Part shown: positions 16,135 through 54,416 of the stretch, piece by piece | Position numbering within the stretch: position 1 is the first letter of the stretch | How the letters are laid out: the number at the start of each line of letters is the position of its first letter | Assembly (NCBI RefSeq): GCF_015352955.1 | Contig: NZ_JACYOX010000023.1 | Location: 28,105-92,104 of the forward strand | Direction of reading: 5' to 3' | DNA: 64,000 nt | Source: Noviherbaspirillum soli | Lineage (GTDB): Bacteria; Pseudomonadota; Gammaproteobacteria; Burkholderiales; Burkholderiaceae_D | Made by a program: the position numbers and the translations under genes | Notes under the pieces: generated by a model | Told to the model about the DNA's origin: nothing | The model's database searches: none | The model's input: the letters and a program-made list of their open reading frames with translations, nothing else

Positions 16135-16199
16135 GGCGTGCACAACCCGTACTGAAGATTGCCGGAATTGTAACACCAGGCTACGCTGGAATTGTAAAT

Positions 16200-16541
16200 G
16201 AAGCAGGCCGATAGGCCGGATTCTGTTACGGCGAACGGCGCAAACCGTTCGCTATGACAGCCATTCCTCTAGGCCGTGAATTACTCCACGGCTCAAGCTT
16301 CCTACCCGCACGCTCCGCGAGCAACATCAACGCGTGCCTATTTGGAATTGCTCCAGGTGGAGGTTACCGCGTTTCACCGTAACTTAATACGCTCGTCTCT
16401 GTGGCCCTATTCCTCGCCTTATGTCTTGCGACTTTCAGCGGACGGCCGTTAACCGTCACCCTGCTCTATGGAGTCCGGACCTTCCTCCCGTCCGCCCGAC
16501 AACCAGTGCCGTGCGAACCAGCGGCTGTCTGGCCTGCTTCG
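16200..16541 (-). ncRNA. rnpB: RNase P RNA (type A)
   Basis: Read on the minus strand, the 5' end GAAGCAGGCCAGACAGCCGC and the 3' end GGCCTATCGGCCTGCTTC can pair as helix P1. Between them are the conserved RNase P blocks: GAGGAAGGTCCGGACTCCAT (CR I), CAGGGTGACGGTTAACGGCC, the AGAGACGAGCGTATTAAG region with GGTGAAACGCGGTAACCTCC, CAAATAGGC and GACAGAATCCGGCCTATCGG. The RNA is the catalytic part of RNase P, which removes tRNA 5' leaders. Its length of about 340 nt is normal for betaproteobacteria. Ends are placed from the P1 pairing and may be off by a few bases. Open frames over it are meaningless. Confidence 0.95.
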
Positions 16542-46209: not shown

Positions 46210-46653
46210 TCAGGCGGCCAGCTTCCTGCTCAATGCCCGCATCAGCGGTCCCAGCACCGGCAGCTTGGCATACAGCTCTTCGGCGGCGTCCCAGTAGTCG
46301 CGATGCAGCACCACCAGGCCGGCGCCATCGAAGCGCAGATGCGAGGCGCCATGAATGCTCTGTGGCCGTTCCCGCAGGCCGAAGCGGGCGGTGAAGTGGA
46401 ACTGCCAGAGCAGTACCGCACTCCCGTCGCCGCCCTCGCCGCCGATGCGTTCCGTGACGATGAAGCGCGGCTGCCCGACCTGGCCGAACATGTGATGAAA
46501 CACCTGCCGTATCGCGGGCACGCCGCGCACGTCGTTGAACGGATCCTTGAAGCGGGCGTCGGGCGCATAGTAGTCGCCGATGCGGCCCACGCTTTCCGGC
46601 GTCATGGTCTCGAAATAGTCGGCCAGCCTGGCCAGCGCCTGCGCGGCATCCAT
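46210..46653 (-). CDS. NTF2/SnoaL-like protein, last gene of the light-regulated operon
   Basis: This 147-residue protein of the NTF2/SnoaL-like fold has YFETMTPESVGRIGDYYAPD, ARFKDPFNDVRGVPAIRQVF and SHLRFDGAGLVVLHRDYWDA. Such domains bind small hydrophobic ligands or catalyse isomer shifts. It is the eighth and last gene of the operon beginning at 53213, 11 nt after the SDR gene. Homologous SnoaL-like genes occur beside CFA/COG2907 genes in the sigmaE-ChrR regulons of other proteobacteria (recollection, not searched). Its role here is unknown. Confidence 0.65.
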   Translation of the reverse strand: MDAAQALARLADYFETMTPESVGRIGDYYAPDARFKDPFNDVRGVPAIRQVFHHMFGQVGQPRFIVTERIGGEGGDGSAVLLWQFHFTARFGLRERPQSIHGASHLRFDGAGLVVLHRDYWDAAEELYAKLPVLGPLMRALSRKLAA

Positions 46654-46664
46654 GGGTGCTTCCC

Positions 46665-47441
46665 TCACAGTCCGGTAATGCGCCGCACCAGCGGGAAATA
46701 CCAGCGGTACGGCAGGAGCGACAGCAGCTTCATCGGCAGCGTGAAGCGGCGCGGAAAATCGATTTCGAACGCGGTGCCGGCATAGCCCTTGAGTATTGCC
46801 TGCGCCGCCTGCTCCGGCGTGATCAGCGCCGGCATCGAGAAGTCGTTGCCGGCGGTGAGCGGCGTGGCGACGAAGCCCGGATTGATCACCCGTACCCCCA
46901 CGCCCTTCGGCGCCAGGTCCAGGTACAGGGTTTCGGCGAAATTGATCAGTGCTGCCTTGGTCGGTCCATAGATCAGGGACTTCGGCAGGCCGCCGTAGCC
47001 GGCCACGCTGGCGACGAAAGCCAGCTGGCCCTGCCCCTGCCGCAGCAGGCAGGGCATGAGGCAGGCGGCAAAGGCGACGGCGCCGCGCAGGTTGATGGCT
47101 ATCATGCGGCTGGCGACGCCGAGATCGAGCTCCCAGGCGCGCATCGGCTGATAGTCGGCGGCGAGATAGACCGCCACATCGACACCGCCCCAGCGATCCA
47201 TCAGGAAGGCAGAGGCCCGCGCCAGGCTGGCCGGATCGGCGGCGTCGCATGGCAGCACCAGCGCATCGGCGGCATCGGGCGCATTGCCGGCAAGCTGCTG
47301 CAGCATGCTTTCCTTGCGCGCCGACAGCGCTACCCTGGCGCCACGCGCGAGCAAGGCGCGCGCCAGCGCCGCGCCGATGCCGCTGGACGCGCCCAGCAGC
47401 CAGACCCGCTTGCCGCGCCAGTCCGTGATCGCCGCGTTCAT
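46665..47441 (-). CDS. SDR family oxidoreductase
   Basis: This 258-residue short-chain dehydrogenase has the nucleotide motif LLGASSGIGAALARALL, the catalytic Ser in FVASVAGYGGLP and the YxxxK motif in SLIYGPTKAALINF. The C-terminus has FPRRFTLPMKLLSLLPYRW, a basic-hydrophobic end often found in membrane-lipid-acting SDRs. It probably reduces or oxidises an alcohol/ketone group on a lipid-like substrate. Its start overlaps the DUF3833 gene stop by 4 nt (47438-47441). Confidence 0.85.
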   Translation of the reverse strand: MNAAITDWRGKRVWLLGASSGIGAALARALLARGARVALSARKESMLQQLAGNAPDAADALVLPCDAADPASLARASAFLMDRWGGVDVAVYLAADYQPMRAWELDLGVASRMIAINLRGAVAFAACLMPCLLRQGQGQLAFVASVAGYGGLPKSLIYGPTKAALINFAETLYLDLAPKGVGVRVINPGFVATPLTAGNDFSMPALITPEQAAQAILKGYAGTAFEIDFPRRFTLPMKLLSLLPYRWYFPLVRRITGL

Positions 47442-47983
47442 GGCGCCGGCCGCTTCATGAAGCTCAGGGTGACGTCGCCGACATGGATGCCGAACTTGCT
47501 CACCGCCGAGCGGTTCAGCATCACCTTCTCGTCCACCAGGAACATCCAGTCATCGACATCCACATTCCATACCCTGCCATCGACCGGCAACGCCAGCACA
47601 TAGCGCCATTGCAGCGCATTGCCCGCGGTCTCGCCGCGCGCCGGGCCCACCACATCGTCGGCGTGGCCGATGAAGCCGCGCTCGCCGTCGCGGCTGATGG
47701 TCCATACCCGGCGCGACGTGGTGCCGTCGGACCAGCTGAAGTGTTCATCCAGCGTGCCTACCTGCCGGCCGTCGCGCTCGGCCCAGCTGGCCTCGATCAC
47801 CACATGGAAGCGCTTGACAACCTCGCCCGAGCGCGACTGGAACATGCCCCAGCCGTCCACGGTGCCGTTGAAATAGCGGGGCAGGTCCAGCACCGGCTGG
47901 GCCGCCTGGTAATGCGACACCGGCACCCCGGCGCAGCCGCCCAGCAGAAGGCATAGCGAAGCAATGGCAAGCAGTTTTTTCAT
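47438..47983 (-). CDS. DUF3833 lipoprotein
   Basis: This 181-residue protein has a lipoprotein signal: MKKLLAIASLCLLLGGCAG, with lipobox LLGGC and Cys near residue 17. The body (YFNGTVDGWGMFQSRSGEVV, LDEHFSWSDGTTSRRVWTIS, DDWMFLVDEKVMLNRSAVSK) is that of DUF3833. Members often sit with CFA, DUF1365 and COG2907 genes. It is probably anchored in the outer or inner membrane facing the periplasm. It overlaps the upstream transporter and downstream SDR genes by 4 nt each. Confidence 0.8.
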   Translation of the reverse strand: MKKLLAIASLCLLLGGCAGVPVSHYQAAQPVLDLPRYFNGTVDGWGMFQSRSGEVVKRFHVVIEASWAERDGRQVGTLDEHFSWSDGTTSRRVWTISRDGERGFIGHADDVVGPARGETAGNALQWRYVLALPVDGRVWNVDVDDWMFLVDEKVMLNRSAVSKFGIHVGDVTLSFMKRPAP

Positions 47984-49254
47984 GTCCGGATCTCCAGTAG
48001 TGTGCGCCAGCGCCACGCAAGCGCGGCGGCCAGCAGTTTGAGCGCCAGCGGCAACAGGCAATAAGCGGTCGTCAGCGCGGCGCGGGCAGCCGGCCCGGTG
48101 CTGCCGGGCTGGTAACCCAGCCATGCCAGCGCCGGCAATGCGATGCCGGCGGCCAGCGCAAGATTGAGCTTGGCGACCAGGTTCCACCAGCCGAAATAGG
48201 CGCCGGCCCCCGCCCCAGGCGCCTGCCGCTCGCCGGCGTCAGCCTCGGCGATGTCGGCCAGCAGCGCCGCCGGCAGCGCCAGATCGGCGCCGAGCGCCAG
48301 GCCCGACAGCAGGCATACCAGCGCAAACAACTGCACATCGCCCGCGGCGATGCCCAGCGTGCCGGTGAATGTGGCCGCCGCCAGCAGCATGCCCAGGGTC
48401 CAGGCGCGCATGCGGCCCAGGCGCCGCGCCAGCTTGACCCACAGCGGCAGGCCCAGCGCGCCGGCCAGGAAATACAGGGCCAGCAGCGGCCCGCTCCATT
48501 GCGGCGCGCCCAGCACGTCGGCGACGAAGAACAGCACCAGCGTGGCCGGCAGCGCGCCGGCAATGCCATTGACGGCAAACACCGCCAGGAGGCGCGCAAA
48601 GCGCGGGTTGCGCCATGCCCGGCCCATGCCCGCGACCAGGGGTGCTTGCACCGCCACGGCGTCCCGCCGCGGCAGCGTCGGCGCACCGCGCCAGGCCAGC
48701 AGCGCGGCGCCTAGCACCAGCAGCGGATAGAGCCAGGCCAGCAGCGACAGGCCGCGCGCCAGGTCGGCCGACAGCAGCCCCGGCAGCGCCGCCGCCAGCA
48801 ATATGCCAAGCAGGCCAAAACCTTCGCGGCTGGCGGTCAGGCGGGTGCGCCCGGCGGCAGTGCCGCCGACTTCCGTGCCCCAGCTCTGATGGACGATGGT
48901 CGCCAGCGAGAAACCGAAGAAGGTCAGCAGCATGAACAGCAGCAGCCAGGCCGCGGCGCCCTGTGCCGGCGGATGCATCAGGCCGAACAGGCCGCCGGCC
49001 AGCATTGCCAGCGCCAGCGCCAGCGGCGGGCCGCGCCGCCGCATGCGGTCGGTCCAGGCGCCCAGCAGCGGGTCGACGCCGGCATCGGCCAGGCGCGCCG
49101 CCAGCAGCAGCCCGCCCAGCAGTTCCAGCGACAGTCCGGCCTGCGCATAGCGCTGCGGCAGGTGCACATACAGCGGCAGGGCCGCCATCGCCAGCGGCAG
49201 GCCAAGCGCGCCGTAGCACAGGGTCTGGCGCAGGCCGGGCGCGGCGGCGCTCAT
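47980..49254 (-). CDS. MFS transporter of the GPH/melibiose-carrier group
   Basis: This 424-residue membrane protein has about 12 hydrophobic segments. The cytoplasmic loop ADAGVDPLLGAWTDRMRRRG matches the GPH family (DPxxGxxxDR). I suspect export or flipping of a lipid-like or sugar substrate, because it sits within the lipid operon. The start at 49254 overlaps the stop of the chalcone-isomerase-like gene. The ATG gives MSAAAPGLRQTLCYGALGLP. Confidence 0.82.
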   Translation of the reverse strand: MSAAAPGLRQTLCYGALGLPLAMAALPLYVHLPQRYAQAGLSLELLGGLLLAARLADAGVDPLLGAWTDRMRRRGPPLALALAMLAGGLFGLMHPPAQGAAAWLLLFMLLTFFGFSLATIVHQSWGTEVGGTAAGRTRLTASREGFGLLGILLAAALPGLLSADLARGLSLLAWLYPLLVLGAALLAWRGAPTLPRRDAVAVQAPLVAGMGRAWRNPRFARLLAVFAVNGIAGALPATLVLFFVADVLGAPQWSGPLLALYFLAGALGLPLWVKLARRLGRMRAWTLGMLLAAATFTGTLGIAAGDVQLFALVCLLSGLALGADLALPAALLADIAEADAGERQAPGAGAGAYFGWWNLVAKLNLALAAGIALPALAWLGYQPGSTGPAARAALTTAYCLLPLALKLLAAALAWRWRTLLEIRT

Positions 49255-49841
49255 GACGGCTTGCGCGGCGGTTGCAGCAACTGGCTGCGCAAGCCGGGGC
49301 TGCGGCTGTCCGGGTGCAGCCAGATGGCGAAGAACCAGCGGCCGAATTCGGCATCGGCCAACTCGCCGCGCAGCCGGTCCTGATGGAAGAAGCGCACGCC
49401 CTGGCCGGGCATGCGCACGCCGGTGATGGTGTCTCCCTTCTGCACGTCGGGAAACAGGCGCTGCAGCTGCGCCTCCCATTCGGGCAGCCGGGCCGGGTCG
49501 GCGCCCAGCCTGCGCATTTCCTCCATGCTCGCCTGCACCAGGCGCGCGCCGGGAATGTCGCGCCGGTATTCCAGGCGCAGTGCCAGCGGCGCCTCCCCCG
49601 CATCATTGCCTGCCACAAACAGCGTGGCTTGGTACAAGGCAATGCCCAGCCAGCGCATTTCGCCGCTGCCCCAGCGGGTCCAGGCGCCGGGCGCAACGCC
49701 AGGGTTGTCACGGACGGCATCGGGCAGCGCCAGCGCCGGCGCGGCCGCGCACAGCAGCGCACAGGCCGCGACGGCAGCCGTCACCGCATGGCGCCATGGC
49801 GCGCGCCTATGCATGCCGAGCCCTGCCCGCCAGCCATTCAT
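49251..49841 (-). CDS. Secreted chalcone-isomerase-like protein
   Basis: This 196-residue protein has an N-terminal signal (RHAVTAAVAACALLCAAAPA, cleavage near ALA-LPDA) and a chalcone-isomerase-like body (GSGEMRWLGIALYQATLFVA, RDIPGARLVQASMEEMRRLG, GVRFFHQDRLRGELADAEFG). True chalcone isomerases bind flavonoids, while bacterial CHI-like proteins are usually fatty-acid-binding and non-enzymatic. In this operon fatty-acid binding in the periplasm is the more likely role. ATG 49841 overlaps the CFA gene stop (ATGA). Confidence 0.75.
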   Translation of the reverse strand: MNGWRAGLGMHRRAPWRHAVTAAVAACALLCAAAPALALPDAVRDNPGVAPGAWTRWGSGEMRWLGIALYQATLFVAGNDAGEAPLALRLEYRRDIPGARLVQASMEEMRRLGADPARLPEWEAQLQRLFPDVQKGDTITGVRMPGQGVRFFHQDRLRGELADAEFGRWFFAIWLHPDSRSPGLRSQLLQPPRKPS

Positions 49842-51067
49842 GCTGCGTGCCGCAGCTCGAACTGGATGACATCGGTGCAGCCGCTGTCGAAGCCGGCTTC
49901 GCAGTACGCCAGGTAAAAGCGCCAGATGCGGTGGAAGCGCTCGTCGAAGCCCAGCGCGGCGATCTCGGTCCAGCGCTGCTCCACGGTCTGCGCCCATGCG
50001 GCCAGCGTGCGCGCATAGTCCGGGCCGAAGGCATGGCTGTGGGTCAGTGCCAGCCCGGCGCGCCTGGCCTGCCCGGCGAAGGCCGACGGGCTGGGCAGCA
50101 TGCCGCCGGGGAAGACATGCTGCTGGATGAAGTCGGTGCCGCGCCGGTAGCGGGCAAACAGGTCGTCGCGGATGGTGATGCTCTGCACCACGGCGCGGCC
50201 GCCTGGCTTCAGCAGGCGCCGCAGCGCATTGAAATAGGACGGCCACCAGCGCTCGCCAACCGCCTCGAACATTTCGATCGACACGATATGGTCGAACTGC
50301 TCGCCGCCGAGGTCGCGGTAATCGCAGAGCAGCAGCCTGGCCTGGCCTTCCAGGCCGGCGCGCCGCATCCGGGCCTGCGCATACTCCAGCTGGGCCGGCG
50401 ACAGCGTCACGCCCACCACCTCGACACCCGCCTCGCGCGCCGCCACTTCGGCGAAGCCGCCCCAGCCACAGCCGATTTCCAGTATTCGCTGGCCGGGCGA
50501 GGCGCCGAGGCGCTGCAGGATGCGGCGGTATTTGGCCAGCTGCGCCTCGGCCAGCGGCCTGGCGGCATCGCCTTCATACAGCGCGCTGGAATAGCTCATC
50601 GTGGCATCCAGCCAGAGGCTGTAGAAGTCGTTGCCCAGGTCATAGTGGGCCATGATGTTGCGGCGCGAGCCGGCCCGGCTGTTGTCGCGGACCAGATGGC
50701 GCAGGCGCGCCGCCAGCAGGCGCCACCACTGGCCATAGACCGCTTTGGCCAGCGCTTCGCGGTTGTTCGCCAGCAGCGTCAGCAGGGCGGCCAGGTCTGG
50801 GCTGTGCCAGTCGCCGGCGATATGGGACTCGGCCAGGCCGATGTCGCCGCGCGCCAGCACCTCGTCGAACAGGCGCCAGTCGGTGATCTCGATATGCGCA
50901 TGCGGCCCGGCCTGGTCGTCGCCGAAGCAGCAGTGCCCGCCATCCGGCAGGCGCATGTCCAGCCTGCCGTGGCGGATGTTTTCCAGCATCTTCAGCAGCA
51001 CGGCAGCACTACGCGGCAACGCGCCGATGGCGGCGGGCAGGCTGAGCATTTGTTCCGGAATGGTCAT
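49838..51067 (-). CDS. CFA-type phospholipid SAM-dependent methyltransferase
   Basis: This 409-residue enzyme of the cyclopropane-fatty-acid synthase family shows YDLGNDFYSLWLDATMSYSS, the SAM motif ILEIGCGWGGFAEVAAREAG and QYDHIVSIEMFEAVGERW-type HIVSIEMFEAVGERWW, all CFA signatures. It methylates double bonds of membrane phospholipid acyl chains. The operon context suggests a function beyond plain cyclopropanes, possibly methylated or furan-type chains. The start at 51067 overlaps the DUF1365 stop. Confidence 0.88.
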   Translation of the reverse strand: MTIPEQMLSLPAAIGALPRSAAVLLKMLENIRHGRLDMRLPDGGHCCFGDDQAGPHAHIEITDWRLFDEVLARGDIGLAESHIAGDWHSPDLAALLTLLANNREALAKAVYGQWWRLLAARLRHLVRDNSRAGSRRNIMAHYDLGNDFYSLWLDATMSYSSALYEGDAARPLAEAQLAKYRRILQRLGASPGQRILEIGCGWGGFAEVAAREAGVEVVGVTLSPAQLEYAQARMRRAGLEGQARLLLCDYRDLGGEQFDHIVSIEMFEAVGERWWPSYFNALRRLLKPGGRAVVQSITIRDDLFARYRRGTDFIQQHVFPGGMLPSPSAFAGQARRAGLALTHSHAFGPDYARTLAAWAQTVEQRWTEIAALGFDERFHRIWRFYLAYCEAGFDSGCTDVIQFELRHAA

Positions 51068-51840
51068 GGTTGTTTGTCGTTGAGCGGAGAAGAAGGTTGG
51101 CGGAAAAATGGCGCGCCCTTGCGCCACAGCTTGAGTGCCTGCCAGTGGATGCGCAGCACGATCAGGAGCGTCATGAAGGGATAGCGCAGCGTCGCGCGCA
51201 GCACGCCTGCCGCGTCCAGCGCCACGGCCTGGCCGGATATGGCGGTATGGAGCAGGTCGCCGGCGTCATCGGCATGCTCGATGCGCGCGAGCCGCCAGAA
51301 CGGCGCGTGATCGACGCTGCGGGCATAGAAGCGGAAGCGATAGTGGCCCTGCAGCGCCAGAAACGGCGAGACATGGAAGGTCTTGGCCGCCTGCAGCGTC
51401 TCACCCTCGGCCAGCGCCCTGCCGGCGGCGTGCGCCAGCAGGTAGCGATGGCGCTGGCCAAAGGTGTTGCTGACCTCGGCCAGTACCGCCACCAGCGTGC
51501 CATCGGCCGCATGGCAGAACCAGAAGCTGACCGGATTGAACACGAAGCCCAGCATGCGCGGAAAGCATTGCAGCCAGATTTCGCCGTCGGCATGCAGGCC
51601 CGACTGCGCCAGCAGCGCGCGTATCCATGGCAGCGGATGGCTGCCGTCGCGCGCGCCATGGTCGGCGTAATGAAAGCTCAGCAGATTGAAGCGGTTGATG
51701 GAAAACAGACGGTTGGCGCTGGCTTCCAGCGCAGACAGCGGCAGCAGGCAGAAGCAGACCGGATAGACGAAGCGATTGGCCACCGGCCGCAGGCGGCGGT
51801 GCATCACCTGCCCCATGAACAGCCGCGCCGCCGGCTTCAT
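51064..51840 (-). CDS. DUF1365 protein
   Basis: This 258-residue protein starts MKPAARLFMGQVMHRRLRPV and contains FVYPVCFCLLPLSALEA, FNPVSFWFCHAADGTL, YLLAHAAGRALAEGE and AAKTFHVSPFLALQGHYRFR, all DUF1365 (COG3496) features. FNPVSFWFC and KTFHVSPF are its hallmarks. The biochemical function is not established; it is almost always found next to COG2907 and CFA genes. It overlaps the flavoprotein stop (51837-51840). Confidence 0.88.
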   Translation of the reverse strand: MKPAARLFMGQVMHRRLRPVANRFVYPVCFCLLPLSALEASANRLFSINRFNLLSFHYADHGARDGSHPLPWIRALLAQSGLHADGEIWLQCFPRMLGFVFNPVSFWFCHAADGTLVAVLAEVSNTFGQRHRYLLAHAAGRALAEGETLQAAKTFHVSPFLALQGHYRFRFYARSVDHAPFWRLARIEHADDAGDLLHTAISGQAVALDAAGVLRATLRYPFMTLLIVLRIHWQALKLWRKGAPFFRQPSSPLNDKQP

Positions 51841-53213
51841 GCCGCGCGCGCCCGTTCCGCCGGGGCGGATTGCATCGCCGCGCCTTCCTGCCACGGCGCA
51901 TAGCAGCCGAATGCATTGGCCACCCGCAGCGCCGACTTCAGGCCATCTTCATGGAAGCCGTAGCCATTCCAGGCGCCGCACAGCCAGATGCCATCACGCC
52001 CCTGCCGCAGCGCCAGTTCCTCCTGGGCCGCAATGGCGGCGCTGTCAAACAGCGGATGGGCATAATCGAACTCCGCCAGCACGGTGTGCGCAGCCGGCTC
52101 GCGGCGCGGATTCAGGGTCACGATGACCGGCGTGTCGAAAGGCAGCGGCTGCAGCCGGTTGATCAGATAGGACACGCCCACGGGCGCCGCGCCGGACGCG
52201 TCGCTGGCGGCCTGGTAATTCCAGGCCGACCAGAGCGCGCGGTCGCGCGGCAGCAGGCGCGGGTCGGTATGCAGCACGGCGCGATTGGGCTGGTAGCGGA
52301 TCGCGCCCAGCAGGCGGCGCTCGTCGGCGCTGGCATCTGCCCCCAGCAGCGCCAGCGCCTGATCGCTGTGGCAGGCCAGCACCACGTCGTCGAACAGCCG
52401 GCAGTCATGGTCGGTCTCGACCAGCGCGCCGAATTCCACCCGGCGCACCTGACGCACCGGCGTAGCCAGCCGGATATGCCCGATGCCAGCCGCCAGCTTG
52501 CGCACGTATTCCCTGCCGCCGCCGACGATGGAGCGCCATTGCGGTCGGCCGAACACCTGCAGCAGGCCATGATTGCGGCAGAAGCGCACGAAGGTCGCCA
52601 GCGGATAGTCCAGCATCTGTCCCGCCGGGCAGGACCAGATCGCGGCCGCCATGGGCAGCAGGTACCAGTCGGCAAAGGCCCGGGAATAGCCGCCGGCGCG
52701 CAGGAAGTCGCGCAGCGTCATGCGGCTCTCCGGATGCGCTTCCAGCCAGGCCACGCTGTGGCGATTGAAGCGCAGGATGTCGGCCAGCATGCGCCAGAAA
52801 GCCGGCCTCACCAGGTTGCGCTTCTGCCCGAACACCGTGCCCAGGCTGCTGCCGGCCCATTCCAGGTCAGGCTGGTCCAGGCTGACCGCGAAAGACATGT
52901 CGGTTGCCACGCTGTCGATCTGGAGATGGTCCAGCATCGCGGTCAGGTTGGGATAGGTGTGGTGATTAAAGACCAGAAAGCCGGTGTCGACCGGATGGCT
53001 GATGCCATCGACCTTCACATCCACCGTGTTGGTATGGCCGCCCAGGTAATTGCCTGCCTCGTACAGCGTCACCTTGTACCGCTGCGACAGCAGCCACGCG
53101 CTTGCCAGCCCCGAGATGCCGGCGCCCACCACGGCAATGCGCCTGCGGCCGCCTTTGGCTTCTACCGTCCTGTTCCCGGCGTCAGCCGCCCGGTCTGGCA
53201 TCGCGTATTCCAT
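51837..53213 (-). CDS. COG2907 FAD-dependent oxidoreductase, first gene of the lipid operon
   Basis: This 458-residue flavoprotein has the FAD Rossmann motif IAVVGAGISGLASAWLLSQR at about residues 26-45, then LYEAGNYLGGHTNTVDVKVD, DTGFLVFNHHTYPNLTAML and a C-terminal FAD-binding LCGAWNGYGFHEDGLKSAL. This is the amine-oxidase-like family COG2907, found with DUF1365 and CFA genes. A desaturase or oxidase role on acyl chains is plausible but not proved. ATG 53213 has AGGAGC just upstream. A promoter and operator precede it (separate entries). Confidence 0.87.
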   Translation of the reverse strand: MEYAMPDRAADAGNRTVEAKGGRRRIAVVGAGISGLASAWLLSQRYKVTLYEAGNYLGGHTNTVDVKVDGISHPVDTGFLVFNHHTYPNLTAMLDHLQIDSVATDMSFAVSLDQPDLEWAGSSLGTVFGQKRNLVRPAFWRMLADILRFNRHSVAWLEAHPESRMTLRDFLRAGGYSRAFADWYLLPMAAAIWSCPAGQMLDYPLATFVRFCRNHGLLQVFGRPQWRSIVGGGREYVRKLAAGIGHIRLATPVRQVRRVEFGALVETDHDCRLFDDVVLACHSDQALALLGADASADERRLLGAIRYQPNRAVLHTDPRLLPRDRALWSAWNYQAASDASGAAPVGVSYLINRLQPLPFDTPVIVTLNPRREPAAHTVLAEFDYAHPLFDSAAIAAQEELALRQGRDGIWLCGAWNGYGFHEDGLKSALRVANAFGCYAPWQEGAAMQSAPAERARAA

Positions 53214-53245
53214 GCTTGCTCCTTGTGTTTCACTTCATCGTCTTG

Positions 53246-53273
53246 TCTTTATTGCCCGATTTGTCCATGACAA
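53246..53273 (-). promoter_or_regulatory. Predicted promoter of the lipid operon
   Basis: The minus strand has TTGTCA (53273-53268) as a possible -35, a 16-bp spacer and TAAAGA (53251-53246) as a possible -10. The -35 lies inside the palindrome 53261-53273, so a regulator bound there would block RNA polymerase. Consensus matching is imperfect, and the spacer is one base short of ideal. Confidence 0.4.
53261..53273. promoter_or_regulatory. Operator-like palindrome 1 (TTGTC-N3-GACAA)
   Basis: The sequence is TTGTCCATGACAA, a perfect inverted repeat with a 3-nt centre. It overlaps the predicted -35 of the leftward operon. Identical half-sites recur at 53398-53410 and 53461-53473. I infer binding by the LitR-like regulator encoded at 53475. 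Confidence 0.65.
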
Positions 53274-53397
53274 AACAGAACGGCAGCCATTGTTCATCGC
53301 TTCCGGGCACTGGACGGCACGGAAGGCGAAGGGTGTTCGGAGTTTTATACGGCTGGAGCAAGCATTCGGATGCAAAAGCCTGTACGCCGGAATTTTT

Positions 53398-53410
53398 TTG
53401 TCATGGACAA
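53398..53410. promoter_or_regulatory. Operator-like palindrome 2 (TTGTC-N3-GACAA)
   Basis: The sequence is TTGTCATGGACAA. It covers the predicted -35 (TGGACA, 53404-53409) of the regulator gene, which is followed after 17 bp by TAATAT (53427-53432). The position fits autorepression of litR. Confidence 0.65.
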
Positions 53411-53432
53411 CAATGCTGACGCTGGCTAATAT
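53404..53432 (+). promoter_or_regulatory. Predicted promoter of the LitR-like gene
   Basis: There is a -35 TGGACA (53404-53409), a 17-bp spacer and a -10 TAATAT (53427-53432), so transcription would start near 53439, about 35 nt before the start codon at 53475. Palindrome 2 overlaps the -35, and palindrome 3 lies in the leader. Confidence 0.5.
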
Positions 53433-53460
53433 AGACACGCCCCAATTTCTTGTCAACAAT

Positions 53461-53473
53461 TTGTCCAGGACAA
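53461..53473. promoter_or_regulatory. Operator-like palindrome 3 (TTGTC-N3-GACAA)
   Basis: The sequence is TTGTCCAGGACAA, ending 1 nt before the ATG at 53475 and containing the AGGA ribosome binding site. A further half-site TTGTC lies 11 nt upstream (53450-53454). Protein bound here could block transcription elongation or translation initiation of litR. Confidence 0.6.
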
Positions 53474-53474
53474 A

Positions 53475-54416
53475 ATGAGTTCTTCACAGCAGATGCGACC
53501 GGCACTAGGCATTACGGCGACGGAGCGGGAAACCGGATTGTCCAAGGACATCCTGCGCGTCTGGGAACGGCGTTATGGCTTTCCCAGGCCGGATCGCGAC
53601 GCCCATGGCGAACGGCTCTACCCGGCCGTCCAGGTCGACCGGCTGCGGCTTTTGAAGCGCCTGATGGACCAGGGCCACCGCCCGGGGCGCCTGATGGCTG
53701 CCAGCGAGGAAGAATTGCAGGCCCTGGGCGCGGCGGCAGCCGCGCCGGTACGGCAGCCGACAGCCGCCGACCCCTTGCTGCAGCAACTGCTGGCGCTGGT
53801 GAAGGGCCACGACGTGCCGCAGCTGCGCAGCGCCCTCAACCAGGCCATGCTGCGCCAGGGCCTGCAGGACTTCGTCATCCAGACGCTGCCGGTATTGAAC
53901 CGGGCGGTGGGCGAGGCATGGATGAGCGGGGAATTCGAAATCTTTGAAGAGCACCTGTACACCGAACAGGTGCAGGCCCTGCTGCGCCAGGCGATCGCCA
54001 CCCTGCCGGCGCAGCAGGCCGGCAGTCCGCGCATCCTGCTGACCACGGTGCCCGAAGAGCAGCATGGGCTGGGCCTGTTGATGGTGGAAGCCCTGATGGC
54101 GCTGGACGGCGCTTCCTGCATCTCGCTGGGCATCCAGACGCCGCTGTTCGACATCGCGATGGCGGCGCGGGCGCAGCAGGCAGACGTGGTGGCGCTCTCG
54201 TTTTCCGGCGCCTATGCATCGCGCCAGGTGGCGCCGCAAATGGCGCAATTGCGCGCGCTGTTGCCGGACAGCGTCGAACTCTGGGCAGGCGGCGCCGGCG
54301 TCGAGCGGCTGCAGCCGCAGGCCGGCGTGCGGGTGCTGCCGTCGATACAGCATGCGCAGGAAGCGCTTGCCGCCTGGCGCGCCGCCCGCGCGGGCGATAT
54401 CACGGCTGGCGCCTGA
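53475..54416 (+). CDS. litR: LitR/CarH-type MerR regulator with adenosylcobalamin photosensor domain
   Basis: This 313-residue protein has an N-terminal MerR HTH (ITATERETGLSKDILRVWER, RLYPAVQVDRLRLLKRLMDQ), a four-helix segment and a B12-binding Rossmann domain. Trp149, then nine residues, then Glu159-His160 form the Wx9EH motif of the CarH/LitR light sensors. E195-Q-H197-G-L-G200 is the ExHxxG cobalamin motif, followed by SFSG and the WAGGAG loop. In this class the AdoCbl-bound tetramer represses DNA in the dark and light breaks the Co-C bond. It is divergent from the lipid operon and probably controls it and itself. Confidence 0.85.
   Translation: MSSSQQMRPALGITATERETGLSKDILRVWERRYGFPRPDRDAHGERLYPAVQVDRLRLLKRLMDQGHRPGRLMAASEEELQALGAAAAAPVRQPTAADPLLQQLLALVKGHDVPQLRSALNQAMLRQGLQDFVIQTLPVLNRAVGEAWMSGEFEIFEEHLYTEQVQALLRQAIATLPAQQAGSPRILLTTVPEEQHGLGLLMVEALMALDGASCISLGIQTPLFDIAMAARAQQADVVALSFSGAYASRQVAPQMAQLRALLPDSVELWAGGAGVERLQPQAGVRVLPSIQHAQEALAAWRAARAGDITAGA

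What the first reader, a model, noticed from the sequence alone, without database searches (positions are those of the whole stretch)
46210..54416. LitR/CarH-like light sensor divergent from an eight-gene membrane-lipid operon
A MerR regulator with the full Wx9EH and ExHxxG cobalamin motifs faces COG2907 flavoprotein, DUF1365, CFA-type methyltransferase, secreted CHI-like, GPH transporter, DUF3833 lipoprotein, SDR and NTF2-like genes. Related gene sets are known under sigmaE-ChrR (singlet-oxygen response) in other proteobacteria; here a B12 photoreceptor takes that place. No photolyase or carotenoid gene is present in this locus. The natural hypothesis is light-induced modification of phospholipid acyl chains (cyclopropane, methylated or furan type) to resist photo-oxidation.
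Basis: partly seen in the sequence, partly recalled or inferred. Interest (0 to 1): 0.8.

Follow-up and report, generated by a model that had tools for sequence, protein, structure and literature searches.

The report
B12 light sensor facing furan-lipid operon
A soil bacterium carries a gene for a vitamin-B12-type light-sensor repressor back to back with an eight-gene operon, and three copies of one DNA palindrome lie at their likely shared promoters; the repressor would likely let go in light and so switch on genes predicted to build furan fatty acids that would protect the membrane from light damage.

Summary
53475-54416 encodes a CarH/class I LitR-type regulator (MerR DNA-binding domain, both B12 domains, Wx9EH and ExHx2Gx41SxSx27GG). 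It diverges from an eight-gene operon at 46210-53213. The 261-nt gap holds three copies of a palindrome, consensus TTTGTCYWRGACAAA: three of the five TTGTCNNNGACAA places in the 5.6 Mb genome, the other two inside genes. Two copies bracket predicted sigma70 promoters. In relatives such pairs are mostly 62-64 or 72-75 bp apart, about six or seven helical turns. The divergent arrangement recurs in 69 of 77 named, mostly betaproteobacterial loci (best-scoring, capped list). FolE2, glutathione peroxidase and, in three, photolyase share the locus. Among 40 regulator-bearing genomes some have the palindrome before photolyase, photoactive yellow protein, BLUF or aromatic-lyase genes. Gene order matches the UfaD-UfaO-UfaM furan-fatty-acid pathway, and the methyltransferase lacks a bicarbonate ligand of cyclopropane synthases. 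The genome has no ChrR above threshold but has a B12 adenosyltransferase. Light and B12 dependence, DNA binding and lipid product are inferred, not tested. Class II LitR in Pseudomonas already controls ufaM, folE2 and phrB under light, so this is a new variant, with a palindromic operator and no His132 in any relative aligned.

The parts
53475..54416 (+). CarH/class I LitR-type MerR regulator (313 aa): HTH, four-helix B12 cap with Wx9EH, Rossmann B12 domain with ExHxxG
   Evidence: Pfam; PDB phmmer to T. thermophilus CarH E 3e-26; alignment of 28; AlphaFold model pLDDT 87 and Foldseek top hits CarH
53461..53473 (.). Operator O3 TTGTCCAGGACAA, just before the regulator ATG and 4 bp from the predicted operon -35
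53398..53410 (.). Operator O2 TTGTCATGGACAA; contains the predicted regulator -35 hexamer
53261..53273 (.). Operator O1 TTGTCCATGACAA, upstream of the first operon gene
53428..53456 (-). Predicted sigma70 promoter of the operon: TTGACA-N17-TATATT (11 of 12), between O2 and O3
   Evidence: 3 promoter-like matches in the 371-nt region, shuffles mean 0.2; same arrangement in relatives
53404..53432 (+). Predicted sigma70 promoter of the regulator: TGGACA-N17-TAATAT (9 of 12)
   Evidence: a match this good on this strand is found in only 4 of 19 sampled and 1 of 61 named pairs
51837..53213 (-). COG2907-type FAD-dependent oxidoreductase, predicted UfaD (acyl desaturase)
   Evidence: order and family as in PMC7380195
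51064..51840 (-). DUF1365 protein (258 aa), predicted UfaO (O2-dependent furan-ring formation)
   Evidence: PMC7380195 says UfaO homologs contain DUF1365
49838..51067 (-). CMAS-family SAM methyltransferase, predicted UfaM, lacking the His bicarbonate ligand of CFA synthases
49251..49841 (-). Chalcone-isomerase-like protein (Chalcone_3), secreted by the look of its N-terminus
47980..49254 (-). MFS_2/GPH-type transporter
47438..47983 (-). DUF3833 protein, lipoprotein by its N-terminus
46665..47441 (-). SDR oxidoreductase
46210..46653 (-). SnoaL_2/NTF2-like protein, last gene of the operon

Best explanation
The regulator is a CarH-type protein that likely binds adenosylcobalamin in the dark, would sit on the three palindromes and block the two predicted divergent promoters, and would fall off when light breaks the cobalt-carbon bond, so that the operon is predicted to be transcribed in light. 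Shown by sequence: the B12 and adenosyl-capping motif residues, the palindromes, their position over and around sigma70-like promoters, and the recurrence of all this in many Betaproteobacteria. Inferred: that this protein is what binds the palindromes (it is the gene they travel with), that it represses (the spacer is a normal 17 bp, not the 19-20 bp that MerR activators act on, a point from general knowledge), that the two operators are bridged on one face of the DNA (spacing near 6 or 7 helical turns), and that light is the signal. The operon is then predicted to methylate (UfaM), desaturate (UfaD) and oxidise (UfaO) cis-vaccenoyl chains of phospholipids into furan fatty acids that react with singlet oxygen, with the transporter, lipoprotein, SDR and two small proteins in undefined supporting roles.
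For: Regulator: both signature motifs that define CarH in PMC8156234 are present and invariant in 28 of 28 aligned proteins (the best-scoring relatives). Foldseek's top hits are T. thermophilus CarH structures. A B12 adenosyltransferase is in the genome. Operator: 3 of 5 genome places lie in this 261-nt gap, the other two in ORFs. A site with <=1 mismatch lies within 700 nt upstream of the regulator in 35 of 40 sampled and 79 of 80 named loci. Pairs, sought at 55-80 bp, occur in 19 of 40 and 61 of 80; 18 of 19 are 62-64 apart and 60 of 61 are 62-64 or 72-75. A promoter of >=9/12 reads toward the operon in 16 of 19 and 57 of 61, toward the regulator in 4 of 19 and 1 of 61; shuffle mean 6.95 of 61. 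Light link: FolE2, GPx and, in three loci, photolyase share the locus in relatives. Distal operators precede photolyase, PYP, aromatic lyase and BLUF genes. Regulon-type centres: 31 distal places in 40 genomes with the regulator, 16 in 76 without; other centres equal per genome, 1.02 vs 1.05; Fisher p 2.3e-4. ufaM, folE2 and phrB are the light-induced LitR targets named for P. putida. Lipid link: order COG2907-DUF1365-CMAS equals R. palustris ufaD-ufaO-ufaM.
Against: No binding, light or lipid experiment exists. The NCBIfam CarH equivalog cut-off is not reached (118.6 of 400 bits). The His next to Trp that becomes the light-state cobalt ligand in TtCarH is absent in 28 of 28 and 80 of 80 proteins. 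PMC10442372 finds H132A TtCarH mostly stays tetrameric in light, though it cites an earlier report that it comes apart; the position also varies in another cobalamin photoreceptor that loses its adenosyl group in light. The main operator element is an inverted palindrome, not the 11-bp direct repeats of CarH. The own photolyase region (7 kb) has no operator match within 4 mismatches. Sixteen of 40 sampled loci lack a COG2907 match next to the regulator, some because the stretch held is short. Five of 40 sampled loci have no site of <=1 mismatch. The regulon-type centres were chosen after seeing the regulator-adjacent sites, and sites from one genome or genus are not independent.
Confidence: 0.72

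Rival explanations
1. The regulator binds AdoCbl but reads coenzyme supply or cobalt redox state rather than light: the operon is derepressed when AdoCbl runs short or is oxidised.
For: The same motifs would serve; the light-state His ligand of TtCarH is missing in 80 of 80 relatives, and H132A TtCarH switches poorly with light in one study.
Against: Distal operators in relatives mark photolyase, PYP, BLUF and aromatic lyase; photolyase sits in the same locus in L196, L253 and L258. Such genes make sense for light, less for B12 supply.
Confidence: 0.12
2. The regulator works without B12, as CarA or class II LitR do, and is lifted off DNA by a partner photoreceptor (LOV, BLUF) or antirepressor.
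For: Class II LitR is released by a short LOV protein in Pseudomonas. I did not search the own genome for LOV or BLUF genes.
Against: CarA lacks the Trp of Wx9EH and class II keeps only the four-helix B12 domain; here both motifs are intact and invariant in 28 of 28.
Confidence: 0.09
3. The operon makes cyclopropane or simple methyl-branched chains, not furan fatty acids.
For: The third gene is CMAS family and public sources name its homologues cyclopropane synthase.
Against: The bicarbonate ligand His266 of E. coli Cfa is Gln, Cys139 is Ser or Ala, and MFEH is MFEA, while a second CMAS gene in the genome keeps the usual residues (ligands). UfaD and UfaO homologues precede it in the order of R. 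palustris.
Confidence: 0.2
4. The palindromes belong to another regulator and their closeness to the CarH-type gene is incidental.
For: CarH operators described so far are direct repeats.
Against: Sites of <=1 mismatch lie upstream of the regulator in 35 of 40 sampled and 79 of 80 named loci, also where the operon is replaced (L041 by folE2, L056 by DUF378 and fasciclin). Regulon-type sites away from the regulator are about 3.7 times rarer per genome where it is missing.
Confidence: 0.06

Closest known systems
CarH / class I LitR (T. thermophilus, B. megaterium, M. xanthus)
   Same: MerR HTH plus B12 cap and Rossmann domains, Wx9EH and ExHx2Gx41Sx..GG, same fold
   Different: No carotenoid gene among the nine; palindromic operators instead of tandem 11-bp direct repeats; no His after the Trp; about 28% identity to TtCarH
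Class II LitR PplR/PmlR of Pseudomonas with short LOV protein (PMC9758184)
   Same: Light-regulated genes include photolyase, SDR, FAD oxidoreductase, UfaM and folE/folE2
   Different: Class II keeps only the four-helix B12 domain, PmlR2 is released by a LOV protein and binds TGTACA-N12-TGTACA; that hexamer is absent from the gap here
sigmaE-ChrR (ECF11) singlet-oxygen regulon of Rhodobacter
   Same: Core regulon holds furan-fatty-acid genes; RSP1091-1087 has UfaD, UfaO and three more genes
   Different: Own genome has no ChrR above the Pfam cut-off; promoters here look sigma70-like
Vibrio cholerae MerR-like VCA0056 with ChrR
   Same: MerR-like regulator needed for part of the blue-light response; a Cfa-type gene (VC1122) is light-induced
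   Different: There the MerR-like gene is in a predicted operon with phr and ChrR is also present; Vibrio LitR proteins are placed mainly in class IV, without B12 domain - that VCA0056 is one of them is my inference

Membership tests
CarH / class I LitR | MerR DNA-binding domain plus both B12-binding subdomains | tested here: met
   all three over Pfam cut-offs
CarH / class I LitR | Wx9EH motif | tested here: met
   W149, E159, H160 invariant in 28 of 28 and present in 80 of 80 (one search pattern selects for EEH)
CarH / class I LitR | ExHx2Gx41SxV/Tx22-27GG | tested here: met
   E195, H197, G200, S242, G272, G273 with the stated spacings; the V/T is Ser here, and Ser in 76, Thr in 4 of 80
CarH / class I LitR | Fold of the solved CarH | tested here: met
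   first 12 hits are full-length TtCarH, with large rmsd because the domains are placed differently (TMq 0.46-0.54); B12 domain alone TMt about 0.8
CarH / class I LitR | NCBIfam NF052513 CarH equivalog cut-off (400 bits) | tested here: not met
   118.6 bits; the model's name is therefore not applied, the claim rests on motifs and fold
CarH / class I LitR | His after Trp as light-state ligand (not universal) | tested here: not met
   0 of 28, 0 of 80; variable in other members
CarH / class I LitR | Operator of 11-bp direct repeats nAnnTnnACAn | tested here: inconclusive
   Main element is a palindrome; by eye one TnnACA pair 11 bp apart (operator half plus -35) lies on the minus strand
CarH / class I LitR | AdoCbl binding, dark tetramer, photolysis | not testable with these tools
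   needs protein
Class II LitR | Only the four-helix B12 domain; TGTACA-N12-TGTACA operator | tested here: not met
   Rossmann B12 domain present; TGTACA count 0 in the gap
Class II LitR | Short LOV partner protein | not tested
   no LOV search was made
Furan-fatty-acid (Ufa) pathway | UfaO = DUF1365, UfaD = FAD desaturase, UfaM = CMAS-type methylase, in that order | tested here: met
   families; order in R. palustris D-O-M; DUF1365; direct sequence comparison with the named proteins not done
Cyclopropane fatty acid synthase | Bicarbonate ligands Glu239, His266, Tyr317 | tested here: not met
   Glu and Tyr kept, His is Gln; Gln in at least 107 of 120 listed homologues, 9 not matched by the pattern and 4 not displayed
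sigmaE-ChrR regulon | ChrR anti-sigma factor in the genome | tested here: not met
   one weak Cupin_7 match, 21.7 bits, cut-off 27

The most novel reading that the evidence does not exclude
In Betaproteobacteria one B12 photoreceptor is the master switch of photobiology: with a palindrome pair clamped round the promoter at whole helical turns it holds down a furan-lipid membrane shield, pterin and peroxide defence, DNA photolyase, and in some species other photoreceptors (photoactive yellow protein with the lyase that makes its chromophore, and a BLUF protein). It does so with a light switch that does not use the bis-His ligation of Thermus CarH.
Probability: 0.45. Interest if true: 0.85.

Novelty: new variant of a known kind. 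Interest (0 to 1): 0.68.

Why it matters
CarH is described in the papers seen here as a regulator of carotenoid genes. Here the same kind of sensor is tied to a lipid shield, and the 13-bp operator gives a first map of its targets in dozens of genomes. If true, membrane furan lipids would be made when light arrives rather than only after singlet oxygen has struck, and in some species photoactive yellow protein would come under a B12 switch. The missing His132 makes this clade a natural test of whether bis-His ligation is needed for CarH-type release.

Tried and rejected
Relaxed operator search in the own genome (up to 3 mismatches to TTTGTCYWRGACAAA, 152 places) is background: the reversed control gave 210. 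At 0-1 mismatch there are only O3, O1 and C37:3842 upstream of a fasciclin gene; O2 scores 2, as do about a dozen other places (13 loci looked at, C37 and O2 among them; most of the other sites lie inside ORFs). Near the own photolyase (L098) no site was found at up to 4 mismatches; L099 (second MerR gene) and L100 (second CMAS gene) gave only 4-mismatch matches. PYP was sought in the own genome and not found, only a 31% PAS match. FolE2 is absent from the own genome. Rfam on the whole window gave only RNase P at the gathering threshold, no B12 riboswitch. MerR-type activation through a long spacer was rejected because the spacer is 17. A cyclopropane product was considered and ranked below furan. 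Paper searches (listings) showed no paper joining CarH/class I LitR to furan fatty acids or to PYP; only open-licence papers are held, and most listed papers were not opened, so this is weak evidence of absence. The original papers on class III LitR and P. putida PplR were not opened; what is said of them comes from PMC9758184 and PMC8508746 (passages).
Full report
What is there. The window lies in a 5.61 Mb genome (G000, contig C18). The genus is very likely Noviherbaspirillum: same-genus genome G055 has a contig of 248,193 bases that carries the related locus, and a record of the same length with the same locus is named N. suwonense. Six of seven operon junctions overlap by 4 nt (read off).

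The regulator. It matches MerR_1, B12-binding_2 and B12-binding over Pfam cut-offs, and T. thermophilus CarH from residue 13 to 298 (E 3e-26). A1 aligns the window protein with 27 of the 29 relatives that one search gave as loci (L014 and L027 have a stop inside; L007 is the window's own gene); the 13 weaker rows had no locus and are not in it. In these 28, W149, E159, H160, E195, H197, G200, S242, S244, G272 and G273 are invariant. This meets the motif definition of CarH given in PMC8156234 (passages), with Ser in place of V/T. An AlphaFold model (mean pLDDT 87) finds TtCarH as best fold. The curated NCBIfam CarH model is matched at only 118.6 of 400 bits, so the protein is far from the founding members. 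The residue after the Trp is never His: 0 of 28, 0 of 80 named loci. In TtCarH that His becomes the upper ligand in light; PMC10442372 (passages) finds H132A mostly stays tetrameric, against an earlier report that it comes apart. PMC11796333 (passages) reports another cobalamin photoreceptor with Arg there that loses its adenosyl group but shows no bis-His state; PMC9304148 (passages) says many, not all, CarH proteins have the His.

The operator. The 261-nt gap holds TTGTCCATGACAA, TTGTCATGGACAA and TTGTCCAGGACAA. TTGTCNNNGACAA occurs at 5 places in the genome (reversed control 3); the other two lie in ORFs that look by eye like a DNA polymerase and an ATPase. In the window at up to 2 mismatches to TTTGTCNNNGACAA there are 16 matches, shuffle mean 7.7. 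The 61 sites with at most one mismatch in window plus 40 loci give the consensus TTTGTCYWRGACAAA. Two promoter matches share the -10 region between O2 and O3: TTGACA-N17-TATATT toward the operon (11 of 12) and TGGACA-N17-TAATAT toward the regulator (9 of 12), the latter's -35 lying inside O2; a third match, also 9 of 12, reads TAGACA-N17-AACAAT (3 found, shuffle mean 0.2).

Conservation. A homologue of E <= 1e-20 is in 40 of 116 sampled genomes of the family, own included. Of 40 fetched loci (38 genomes besides the own; G017, split over two contigs, left out), 24 have COG2907 diverging from the regulator and 23 of these also DUF1365 and the CMAS gene; 16 have no COG2907 match, a few of them short stretches. 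Of the 77 with more than 2 kb upstream, 69 have COG2907 and DUF1365 and 76 have a site of at most 1 mismatch within 700 nt. In many of these GPx and FolE2 lie between regulator and operon, and photolyase is in the locus in L196, L253 and L258. Pairs were sought at 55-80 bp, first pair per locus: 19 of 40 sampled loci (59: 1, 62: 7, 63: 8, 64: 3) and 61 of 80 named loci (62-64: 21, 70: 1, 72-75: 39), so spacing peaks at 63 and 74 bp, 11 bp apart. Between the pair a promoter of at least 9 of 12 reads toward the operon in 16 of 19 and 57 of 61, toward the regulator in 4 of 19 and 1 of 61; shuffles give a mean of 6.95 of 61. With up to 2 mismatches per pair, 22 of 41 loci incl. the window show it.

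Other targets. TTTGTCNWNGACAA was sought in the 40 regulator-bearing genomes (37 of 40 have it) and in the 76 without (54 of 76). Merged, the 40 have 107 places: 35 within 1.8 kb of the regulator and 72 distal. Of the distal, 31 have a centre of the kind seen at the regulator and 41 another; in the 76 genomes the numbers are 16 and 80. Per genome that is 0.78 vs 0.21 for regulon-type centres and 1.02 vs 1.05 for the rest; Fisher p 2.3e-4. Limits: the centre set was chosen after seeing the regulator-adjacent sites; sites of one genome are not independent; 3 of the 16 come from G107, 82% complete, in a genus whose four other sampled genomes have the regulator. All 72 distal places were looked at in 70 loci with a simple ORF picker. 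It of the 31 regulon-type places intergenic, against 3 of the 41 others. Judging start codons by eye, 27 of the 31 lie within about 260 bp upstream of a likely start and 4 (L105, L160, L176, L181) do not or are unclear. The genes behind them include photolyase (L130, L174), aromatic amino acid lyase (L107, L132, L133; best PDB match of L132's is 2o78), BLUF (L106), GPx (L135), lipocalin (L102, L103), alpha/beta hydrolase (L108, L137), a radical SAM protein (L175), H-NOX (L139), GGDEF-EAL (L172), MCP (L157, L177), fasciclin (L167) (Pfam), and PYP: L169 by PDB match E 3.6e-55, L132, L133 and L159 at 76-80% identity to it, and two distant PYP-like proteins at 27-29%. Others have no evident tie to light, such as an amidase-like gene (L122, by eye) and a transporter (L166, by eye). 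The own genome has the fasciclin orthologue (89% identical) with a 1-mismatch site 250 bp upstream; it lacks PYP and FolE2, and its photolyase region has no site. So in this genome the predicted regulon is the operon, the regulator itself and perhaps fasciclin; the light-gene evidence comes from relatives.

The lipid product. PMC7380195 (passages) shows UfaM, UfaD and UfaO convert vaccenate to a furan fatty acid; UfaO has DUF1365; R. palustris RPA2571-2570-2569 are ufaD-ufaO-ufaM; R. sphaeroides RSP1089, 1088, 1087 have 402, 186 and 245 aa. The window has the same order, with GPH (424), DUF3833 (181) and SDR (258) after an inserted CMAS and Chalcone_3 gene. That RSP1089-1087 are of those three families is my recollection; their single deletions did not change the fatty acids. 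The CMAS enzyme differs from cyclopropane synthases: against E. coli Cfa, His266 is Gln, and by eye Cys139 is Ser and the His after Glu239 is Ala, while Glu239 and Tyr317 are kept. The bicarbonate ligands Glu239, His266, Tyr317 are from PMC11387697 and the CmaA1 equivalents from PMC9821293 (passages); any role of Cys139 is recalled. Of tblastn matches in the fetched loci in which both motifs could be read, 23 of 23 and 58 of 58 show Ser or Ala with MFEA. The own genome's other CMAS (37% identical) keeps YSCAYF, MFEHVG and the His. Hence a methyl-transfer product is likelier than a ring.

How it likely works. Dark: AdoCbl-bound regulator on O2 and O3 covers both predicted promoters; bridging is inferred from the spacing. 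Light: photolysis releases it; operon and regulator are transcribed together. The result would be furan lipids in place when or before singlet oxygen forms. The B12 adenosyltransferase fits; the lack of ChrR over threshold fits a swap of regulators.

What is known. Class II LitR in Pseudomonas controls photolyase, ufaM and folE/folE2 with a LOV partner (PMC9758184, part 1 of 8 and passages; PMC8508746, passages). CarH controls carotenoids. SigmaE-ChrR controls furan genes (PMC6852236, passages). A 2025 survey of pyp operons (PMC12826048, passages) has no hit for MerR, CarH or B12 and lists TAL and BLUF among pyp-operon genes. So the pieces are known; their union in a B12 photoreceptor with a palindromic operator, across Betaproteobacteria and reaching PYP, is the new part.

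Noticed in passing
L099:4832-5818 (G000 C26): A second MerR-type regulator (328 aa, 48% identical over residues 17-93, no B12 domain by Pfam) diverges from a small gene that looks by eye like fasciclin; it may be a class III-type LitR. No palindrome of the present kind lies near it.
   Followed up: partly
L085 (G000 C37:3842) and L167 (G015): Fasciclin orthologues (89% identical) with the operator about 250 bp upstream; in the own genome the site lies in the 3' part of a short ORF that by eye resembles a degenerate MerR HTH.
   Followed up: partly
L132, L133 (G053, G012): Cluster of PYP, aromatic amino acid lyase and a distant PYP-like protein with two operators: chromophore synthesis and sensor under one predicted switch.
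   Followed up: partly
L230, L242, L259: Loci with two CMAS and two lipocalin matches beside GPx and COG2907-DUF1365: an alternative, longer lipid cluster.
   Followed up: no
regulator residue 215: A Cys in the second Rossmann strand is kept in 28 of 28 and 79 of 80 relatives; no role known to me.
   Followed up: no
G058: This genome has five distal regulon-type sites (one before PYP, one before an MCP gene), the most of the 40 genomes.
   Followed up: no
window 16196-16540: RNase P RNA class A on the minus strand.
   Followed up: no
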